The position numbers and the translations under genes are program-made. A DNA stretch of 64,000 bases from Hoplostethus atlanticus (lineage: Eukaryota > Chordata > Actinopteri > Trachichthyiformes > Trachichthyidae): NCBI GenBank assembly GCA_034670405.1, contig JAXDDX010000058.1:2655501-2719500 (forward strand), read 5' to 3'. Below are positions 5,201 through 10,435 of this stretch, piece by piece. The number at the start of each line of letters is the position of its first letter. Positions within the stretch are counted from its first letter, which is position 1. The notes beneath the pieces were generated by a model that did not search any database, was not told the origin of the DNA, and was given only the letters and a program-made list of their open reading frames with translations.

Positions 5201-8200
5201 CATGCACATAGTCTGCAGCAACAAAAGTACCTTACAGATTGAGTGTGATCCTGCATTGAGTACTGCCTATGGTTTTATTTCTACAAAACAGGCTATGGCA
5301 AACATACAGGACAGTGATGAAAGGCTAAAAACAAACAGGCTCTAGTTCAGCATAGGGCAATGCTAAAAAAAACAAATCGATACGGCGATATATCGTGTTC
5401 CTTCCTGATGCGTACTTCATTACAGGCGCTGCCGTATCGATACAGCCGCAAGCGCTGTGACACCAGTTTTGGAAAAGAAAGACACTCATGGCGCAATGCA
5501 CAAGAAAGCCAATAGGTGGGAGCAAAGGCCAATCCCCACACCAATGACATTGTTTCAAACTGCGCCGGTCTCAATTCATGTAAAACATGGATGAAAAACT
5601 CTATCCACCGCCGGCAAAACTGAAGGCAAAGATATGGCAACATTTTGTAGTCAGGAGTTGAGTCATGCAATATGCACGATATGCAAAAACAAAGTCAAAT
5701 ATTGCAGCAACACAACCAACCTTCTTCGTCTTCACATGACAAGATACCTTGTTGATCCGCCGCTAGCAACAGGTACCTCTACACTGAGCCAACGAGAGTC
5801 GTCTCAACCAACTCTGAATGTACAGTTGTTAATAACGAGGGCTTCAGACAACTGCTTAGTGAGTGTGATCCACCTCATACAATCTGTGGGCCTTTAATTG
5901 TGTTTCAATGTGTGTGATCCTTAAGGCTTTGGCCAGTTAAAATAAAAAAAAGTAGCTGTTGTACTAAACTCTGTGTAGGACATGGTCAATATTCAATGTG
6001 TATCATGATATACATCGTATCGTAGCATCTGTATTGTGATCCCTAACGTATCGCAATACCCAGCCTTAGTTCAGCACACTACAGGCTACAGAAGAGCTGC
6101 TGAGTATGAAGGACAGTGAAACTGTAAGAAGGACACATGCCGCTAACCGATCATGAAAATGCTTAAAAACCAAAAAGAGCAAGGCTTTATGCAAATGACA
6201 GAAAATCACAAAAAGCTTCTTTCAACAAACCACATTGCACTAATTGTGTGCCTCGCAGAAACAGAGTGAACACTACTTAGGGTGTTGTTATGTTTCCAAT
6301 TCATCTGATATTTAATTTGCACTTCATTTTTGGAGCACTTTCTCCTCAGCTAGTATGAAGATAAGTTGAATTGGCTGCTTCAGGGCCAAACAGGAGTGTG
6401 ATTACTTACTTATGCTGTCTGATGTGTTGTATTGAGAACCGCTTTGCAGGGTCATATTCAAGCATTCCTGGAACAATCAAAAGAAGTTTTTTTGATGCAA
6501 GTTTGGTTAAGTTAAGGATAAGCTGCAGACATGTTGTGTAAATTATGCCATCTTTCTTAGAATTCAGTAAAATAACTACCCATGTTGTAATACTTTTTCA
6601 GTAGTAGTCAACAGATGTATTTGTTTTGGGACAGAGGCCCTCTTATCCAGATTGTGCCTAGAGCTGATGCAGCTTGATCATATTTATATCTGGCATTAAA
6701 ATGTATCTCCAGTGTACACACTGCAATCCACTTTCTCTGGGTCAGAGAGAGAATCCTACCTCTGAGCAGGTTTGACAAGAGTGGGACACAGTCCTCTGGG
6801 ATACTGTACTCTCCATTCCCAATGTTCTCAAAGAGCTTGTAAATGTTATCTCCTTCAAATGGGTACAAACTGGTTGTGATGTTGTATCTGAAACAGAAAG
6901 CAGAGCGTGGTCCACAAACAGAGTCTAGATCGCATTGGTGCTCCAGCTTTACACCAACTCCCTGTCCTCTTTCTTTAAACATATGCTTTAGGCAACAGAC
7001 ATAGCTACAATCTTTCATCAGGTTGTAATATGTGACAATCTCTGAGGGGAGTTTATTAATAGCAACCAAACTCTCTCACTCCTGTGTAATCACAATATTT
7101 GGAGGGAAAAATCAATTTAACCATTCATTAAAAACCCAATGGTGAAGTGAGACATTTCTAAAGCTCTGTCATTGTGACTCGTCTTCTATTCTGAGGAGGT
7201 CGTTGCCCCAAGCCTTCAGATATGATCTTACAGTGTGACACCCGCTGACCAGATGTCAACCTTGAACCCTGAGAAGGTGTCCAGGCCGTTGGCAATCTCT
7301 GGGGGCTGGAATGCTGGAGAGCCCTGGCTCGTCCTACATGTGTCGTCCTCTGCAAATGGCTCCAGGGCCTGAAGAGAAGAGTACGTTTATACACAGAGAA
7401 GGCCATTGTATAATCCTAAATCAGAACATGTCAAGATTTTTCCACATAAAAAACTTTAGTGTTGTTTCATTCATGCAAGTCTTTACTTTCATTAATGTAA
7501 AGTGAAGTTAGATCATGCTCAGGGAATAGAACAGACTTAAAGTGAAGAAAGTTGAATACATAGAACTGAAGGCTTTCAGAGGCAGGATACTACTGTGCAA
7601 AATAAAGAAATGGGCTGAAAAACACTTCCAACACCAGAGATCAGTCCCAATCCTAACATACTGACTTCTGCAACACCCAGGTCAGAGATTTTGAGCGCTC
7701 CATCTGTGGTCAGCAGCAGATTCCCTGGTTTGATGTCTTTGTGAACGATGCCCTGGCTGTGCAAGTACTCCAAACCATCCAGCAGCTGGCAAAAATAACT
7801 GCAGATGAACACAAATATGACATGCCTTGGAACAGAGTAGCTGTTTGGGCCAAAACAAAGAATTACAGTGTTCTTATTCTGGTAATCCCAATTATTAATA
7901 TGAAATTATAAAGTAATTAAGTACCCGTGGGCTTGATACACAGGAAACCTTTTCTCTGGAACACTGTCGAGCATTTCCTGCATCCCACACACACAATACT
8001 CCATCACCATATACGTGAACACAGTCAAGGAAATTACAATATCACAATGAGCACAGCAAAGCCATTGGTCGAGGTTATTTCAGTAGCAGTCATCATTAAC
8101 AACCCTGAAAGAGCTAATGCGTCGCTTATATCTTAGCCCCATTTGACACAAACGATGCCAAATCTCAATATGTTGCTGATCAAACAGTCTCATCAACGCC

Positions 8201-10435: not shown

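What the first reader, a model, noticed from the sequence alone, without database searches (positions are those of the whole stretch)
8015..9899. stk11 intron 2 keeps a U12-type AT-AC intron with a perfect branch site
The donor is ATATCCTTTT, the 3' end is TTCCTTGAC plus about 10 bases to AC, and the flanking exons (84 and 90 bp) match human lengths exactly. Human LKB1 intron 2 is a known AT-AC intron whose disruption causes Peutz-Jeghers syndrome, so the minor-spliceosome dependence of this kinase appears to be kept in fish. A GT-AG gene finder would miss or misplace this junction.
Basis: partly seen in the sequence, partly recalled or inferred. Interest (0 to 1): 0.7.

Follow-up and report, generated by a model that had tools for sequence, protein, structure and literature searches.

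The report
Conserved minor-spliceosome intron in stk11
The gene for the tumour-suppressor kinase LKB1 in this genome carries, at the same codon as in people, a rare kind of intron that the minor splicing machine removes; this is an expected, already known kind of conservation.

Summary
The window holds stk11 (LKB1) on the minus strand. Its intron 2 (9899-8015, 1885 bp) begins ATATCCTTTT and ends TTCCTTGAC plus nine bases, the last two AC. Flanking exons of 84 and 90 bp equal the human ones, as read from human mutation names. The splice falls at phase 2 in codon Met122, the counterpart of human Met125. Of all junctions tried, exactly one restores the conserved peptide [14 protein letters not shown], and it is AT-AC. 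The motif pair alone would not be proof: 12 of 200 shuffled windows contain one somewhere. Its place at the exact edges of both exons decides.

It is a U12-type AT-AC intron, orthologous to the human one whose mutation causes Peutz-Jeghers syndrome. This is ordinary: U12 introns were kept in all lineages at 156 of 180 compared vertebrate positions, fish included. Splicing itself is inferred; no RNA and no other fish gene could be examined. The most interesting residue: exons 2 and 3 are phase-2 symmetric, so the linked exon 2-3 skipping reported for man and mouse would stay in frame here. A lead in passing is a bsg intron with a U12-like donor but a poor U12 branch site.

The parts
8015..9899 (-). 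stk11 intron 2, U12-type AT-AC intron, 1885 bp
9890..9899 (-). U12-type 5' splice site ATATCCTTTT; the only one of 10162 AT sites in the window (both strands) scoring this high
8024..8032 (-). U12-type branch site TTCCTTGAC, 10 nt after its A to the intron end
8015..8016 (-). AC 3' splice site
9900..9983 (-). stk11 exon 2, 84 bp, ends in AT of codon Met122
7925..8014 (-). stk11 exon 3, 90 bp, begins with G of codon Met122
10155..10435 (-). stk11 coding exon 1 (281 bp of coding sequence)
7666..7798 (-). stk11 exon 4, 133 bp
7232..7368 (-). stk11 exon 5, 137 bp
6760..6887 (-). stk11 exon 6, 128 bp
6410..6467 (-). stk11 exon 7, 58 bp
2228..2427 (-). stk11 exon 8, 200 bp

Best explanation
Intron 2 of this stk11 gene is a U12-type AT-AC intron, orthologous to intron 2 of human STK11/LKB1. 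Shown here: the two signals, their place at the exact exon edges, the codon and phase shared with human, and that no GT-AG pair in the range searched gives the same peptide. Inferred from established knowledge of the minor spliceosome: U11 and then U6atac (U6atac by recall) recognise ATATCCTTTT, U12 pairs with TTCCTTGAC, the A of GAC is the likely branch nucleotide (the other consensus A is G here), and exons 2 and 3 are joined at AT|G of Met122. Retention of the intron would put a stop at codon 156, so full-length kinase depends on removing it.
For: Exon and intron edges and the 5'ss and branch motifs. Protein match to STK11, uninterrupted through the junction. One junction of all tried gives [14 protein letters not shown], and it is AT-AC; 0 of 22 in-frame GT/GC-AG options do. 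5'ss log2(U12/U2) of +15.5 and a 9/9 branch for intron 2; the other seven introns of the model score -7.0 to -23.2 (frequencies recalled). Human junction c.374/375 in Met125, a U12-type intron; [quoted passage not shown] Exon lengths 84, 90 and 133, and a sum of 323 for exons 5-7, equal to human as read from mutation names. Retention stop at codon 156.
Against: No RNA evidence. The motif pair alone appears in 12 of 200 shuffled windows. One base of the branch motif (G for A) departs from the printed consensus TCCTTAAC. stk11 intron 6 also holds an 8/9 branch-like motif (44 nt after its A) with a U2-type donor, so branch-like motifs are not specific by themselves. No second fish gene could be compared: searches found no relative, in collections of prokaryote and viral records, and the genome search did not complete (7 tries).
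Confidence: 0.97

Rival explanations
1. The junction is spliced by the major spliceosome through nearby GT-AG sites, and the U12-like motifs are relics or chance.
For: 22 in-frame open GT/GC-AG combinations exist with a donor from -44 to +249 of the exon 2 end and an acceptor from 60 bp into the intron to +59 in exon 3; the motif pair occurs somewhere in 12 of 200 shuffled windows.
Against: 0 of the 22 restores [14 protein letters not shown], which is identical in the STK11 chain. The nearest by position changes the length by +4 residues; the smallest net changes, +1 and -1, need both sites moved by 37 to 59 bp. Of the ten GT sites within -60 to +75 of the exon end, nine match the U2 donor consensus at only 3 to 5 of 9 places and one, at -47, at 7 of 9.
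Confidence: 0.01
2. An AT-AC intron that the major (U2) spliceosome removes; PMC3584512 notes that AT-AC ends are not exclusive to U12-type introns.
For: AT-AC termini alone do not define the class (passage seen).
Against: The 5' splice site and the branch site, which PMC3584512 gives as the defining features, are both of U12 type.
Confidence: 0.01

Closest known systems
Human STK11/LKB1 intron 2 (U12-type AT-AC; Hastings et al. 2005, seen only as a cited title; PMC12366057, passages and Discussion)
   Same: Counterpart codon (Met125 in human, Met122 here; coding exon 1 is 290 bp in human by c.290 and 281 here, 3 codons less), same phase, same flanking exon lengths, U12-type, and a position close to the exon that matters for splicing (c.375-10A>G disturbs it in human; here 10 nt follow the branch A).
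   Different: Length 1885 bp here against 823 bp in human. The human branch letters were not seen, so no letter-by-letter comparison was made.
U12-type introns of fish in general (PMC2831892, PMC7367187; 662 U12 introns in 612 zebrafish genes, as cited in PMC9501576)
   Same: AT-AC is a normal subtype: 22% of U12 introns in Danio rerio and 12% each in Tetraodon and Takifugu.
   Different: stk11 of fish is not named: 0 occurrences of stk11 in the main texts of PMC9501576 and PMC7367187; LKB1 occurs once in PMC2831892, in the reference list. Their supplements were not seen.

Membership tests
U12-type (minor spliceosome) AT-AC intron | 5' splice site ATATCCTT at +1 to +8 | tested here: met
   ATATCCTTTT at 9899-9890; consensus printed in PMC2831892
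U12-type (minor spliceosome) AT-AC intron | Branch site like TCCTTAAC close to the 3' end | tested here: met
   TTCCTTGAC, one base off the printed consensus, 9/9 to TTCCTTRAY (recalled form), 10 nt after the A
U12-type (minor spliceosome) AT-AC intron | AC at the 3' end | tested here: met
   8016-8015
U12-type (minor spliceosome) AT-AC intron | Removal depends on U11/U12/U4atac/U6atac | not testable with these tools
   needs RNA from cells with and without the minor spliceosome
Orthologue of human STK11 intron 2 | Gene is STK11 | tested here: met
   8vsu_C (STK11), E 3.6e-206, and 2wtk_C (STK11), 1.6e-185, against 8.5e-48 for the best other kinase
Orthologue of human STK11 intron 2 | Same codon and phase | tested here: met
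   365 nt of coding sequence before the intron, phase 2, Met122 aligned to a Met of the STK11 chain; human c.374/375 in Met125
Orthologue of human STK11 intron 2 | Same type in other fish stk11 genes | tested here: inconclusive
   no relative found in 2 collections of prokaryote and viral records; own-genome search did not complete in 7 tries

The most novel reading that the evidence does not exclude
The intron is kept because it sets a switch: exons 2 and 3, both multiples of three and bounded by phase-2 introns, are defined together through the minor spliceosome, and when minor splicing is limiting the cell skips both in frame, making a kinase 58 residues shorter and inactive. Linked exon 2-3 skipping is reported in human patients, and the isoform, with an inactive nuclear product, is listed for man and mouse (PMC3012662); the anatomy here keeps the frame open on such skipping, so the switch could extend to this genome.
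Probability: 0.12. Interest if true: 0.5.

Novelty: already known. Interest (0 to 1): 0.15.

Why it matters
It confirms that a disease-relevant human minor intron has a counterpart in this genome, so an animal with this gene could model Peutz-Jeghers splice variants at homologous positions, and it warns that automatic gene models restricted to GT-AG may misplace the exon 2-3 junction. As a discovery it adds little to what is known of U12 intron conservation.

Tried and rejected
Chance test by motif alone: not sufficient, so the argument was moved to protein-fixed exon edges.

Search for other U12-type introns with perfect signals in the window: donors of the form RTATCCTT at seven places (two on -, five on +), of which only the stk11 one paired with a perfect branch motif and AC or AG. 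Weaker U12 introns would be missed by that scan; the bsg intron noted below is one such candidate.

Comparison with other vertebrate genes: the search for related loci in genome contigs (21 stretches matched a pattern, none confirmed) and viral contigs (4 stretches, none confirmed). These hold prokaryote and viral records, so a blank says nothing about fish. Own-genome search: seven identical requests, none answered.

Papers: 860 papers, 20 listed; 22, 20 listed; stk11, U12-type intron, fish: 4; zebrafish lkb1, intron 2, splic: 0; 90, 10 listed; basigin, U12-type intron: 0; STK11, minor intron, zebrafish, conserved: 1. PMC1635337, cited as the U12DB paper, is not held. In the listings, passages and sections that I saw, none states the type of stk11 intron 2 in fish; no paper was read whole, and the whole-genome databases (U12DB, IAOD) that would list it are not on hand as data.

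Rfam over the window: 0 matches at gathering score.

Full report
What was checked. The minus strand of 10435-2228 holds eight coding exons whose joined translation matches STK11 (8vsu_C, E 3.6e-206, query residues 12-371; the best other kinase is an AMPK catalytic chain at 8.5e-48). That the chain is the human protein is recalled; the call names only STK11. Pfam gives a protein kinase domain (PF00069, E 2.4e-58). Exon lengths are 281 (coding part), 84, 90, 133, 137, 128, 58 and 200 bp. The human edges that can be read from mutation names in PMC3012662 (Table 2, seen as a passage) and PMC12366057 (passages and Discussion) are c.290/291, c.374/375, c.464, c.597 and c.920, that is 84, 90, 133 and a sum of 323 for exons 5-7; the sum here is also 323. 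Human coding exon 1 is 290 bp, nine more than here, which is why Met125 in human is Met122 here.

The junction. Intron 2 runs from 9899 to 8015, 1885 bp. It starts ATATCCTTTT and ends TTCCTTGACTGTGTTCAC. It interrupts codon 122 (AT|G, phase 2). A script tried donors from -54 to +199 of the exon 2 end against acceptors from -200 to +49 of the exon 3 start: one combination alone reproduces [14 protein letters not shown] without a stop, the AT-AC one. Among GT/GC-AG pairs with donors from -44 to +249 and acceptors from 60 bp into the intron to +59 in exon 3, 22 keep an open frame (17 GT, 5 GC); 0 of 22 restores the peptide. The nearest by position adds a net 4 residues; the smallest net changes are +1 and -1 residue, with both sites displaced by 37 to 59 bp.

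Is it more than chance? The motifs alone are not: ATATCCTTT is expected 0.88 times in such a window, TTCCTTRAY 3.04 times, and 12 of 200 dinucleotide shuffles contain a complete AT-AC pair at intron-like distance. What chance does not explain is that the pair sits exactly on two exon edges that protein homology fixes without reference to splice signals. As a within-gene control, the same scoring (frequencies recalled, not from a call) gives +15.5 for intron 2 and -7.0 to -23.2 for the seven other introns in the model, the last of which leads to an unproved exon. Intron 6 holds an 8/9 branch-like motif in spite of its U2-type donor, so the branch motif by itself is a weak sign.

How it most likely works. 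By established knowledge of the minor spliceosome (PMC3584512, passages), the 5' site and branch site define a U12-type intron. Either of two As in the consensus branch site can serve as branch point; here one of them is G, so the remaining A is the likely branch point (inference). In human, c.375-10A>G in this intron leads to its retention. Here retention would end the protein at codon 156.

A feature worth a test. Exons 2 and 3 are both multiples of three, and introns 1, 2 and 3 are all phase 2 (lengths). Leaving out exon 2, exon 3 or both gives no stop in exons 1-8, and loss of both removes 174 bp, 58 residues. PMC3012662 reports that a human intron 1 acceptor mutation led to loss of exons 2 and 3 and a deletion of exons 3-7 to loss of exons 2-7, suggests a link to the U12 intron, and says that the exon 2-3 skipped form is the most prominent alternative form listed for man and mouse, with a catalytically inactive nuclear product (passages). 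PMC8034651 (passages) reports that loss of minor-spliceosome parts raises skipping of exons flanking minor introns; it does not name STK11 (0 occurrences), and the forms it describes carry a premature stop, unlike the in-frame skip here. Whether skipping happens in this species is untested.

Place in what is known. PMC2831892 found U12 introns kept in all eight vertebrate lineages, including zebrafish and pufferfish, at 156 of 180 intron positions; of the other 24, 8 were losses, 5 were changes to U2 type and 11 were ambiguous (section read). Of 79 single-subtype clusters with conversion to U2 type, 5 were AT-AC (section read). In PMC7367187, 22% of zebrafish U12 introns are AT-AC, and 12% in each of two pufferfish (section read). 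Finding this intron here is therefore the expected outcome.

Limits. No RNA data and no second fish sequence were available. The assembly search did not answer in seven identical tries.

Noticed in passing
44428-44547 (+): An intron of the basigin gene bsg (exons 44288-44427 and 44548 on; joined, they match basigin chains, best 7y1b_A, E 7.3e-41) starts ATG|GTATCCTTCT, a U12-like donor (log2 U12/U2 +13.9; 2 of 7810 GT sites in the window, itself included, score as high), yet its best U12 branch match is only 6 of 9, 25 nt after its A, and it ends TTTAG after a pyrimidine-rich stretch. It may be a U12-type intron with a poor branch site, an intron on its way between types, or a U2-type intron with an odd donor. 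A paper search for basigin with 'U12-type intron' gave 0.
   Followed up: partly
1536-1481 (-): A possible alternative last exon of stk11: after an acceptor ending TTGCAG it reads GVCSCPVFCFTKSKSKKR and a stop, a cysteine and lysine-rich tail unlike the CKQQ end recalled for human LKB1. Of four C-x-x-x-stop matches in the three minus-strand frames of 2228-1, none is CKQQ, so the usual last exon may lie outside the window. Whether this exon is real is untested.
   Followed up: partly
56324-55675 (-): Overlapping reading frames on one strand that look like a broken transposase (DDE_3, E 8.3e-10, for the 56139-55675 frame, the only one tested), Tc1-like by look.
   Followed up: partly
17577-17966, 39745-40224 and 53690-54229 (+): Neighbours: a Kazal-domain frame, an Ig-domain frame upstream of the bsg exons, and an Ion_trans frame. 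The order resembles human 19p13.3 as recalled (FSTL3, BSG, HCN2, STK11); names other than bsg were not tested.
   Followed up: partly
9060-9037 (-), within stk11 intron 2: A run of 24 C (read on the minus strand) inside intron 2, possibly a place where the assembly length is unsure.
   Followed up: no
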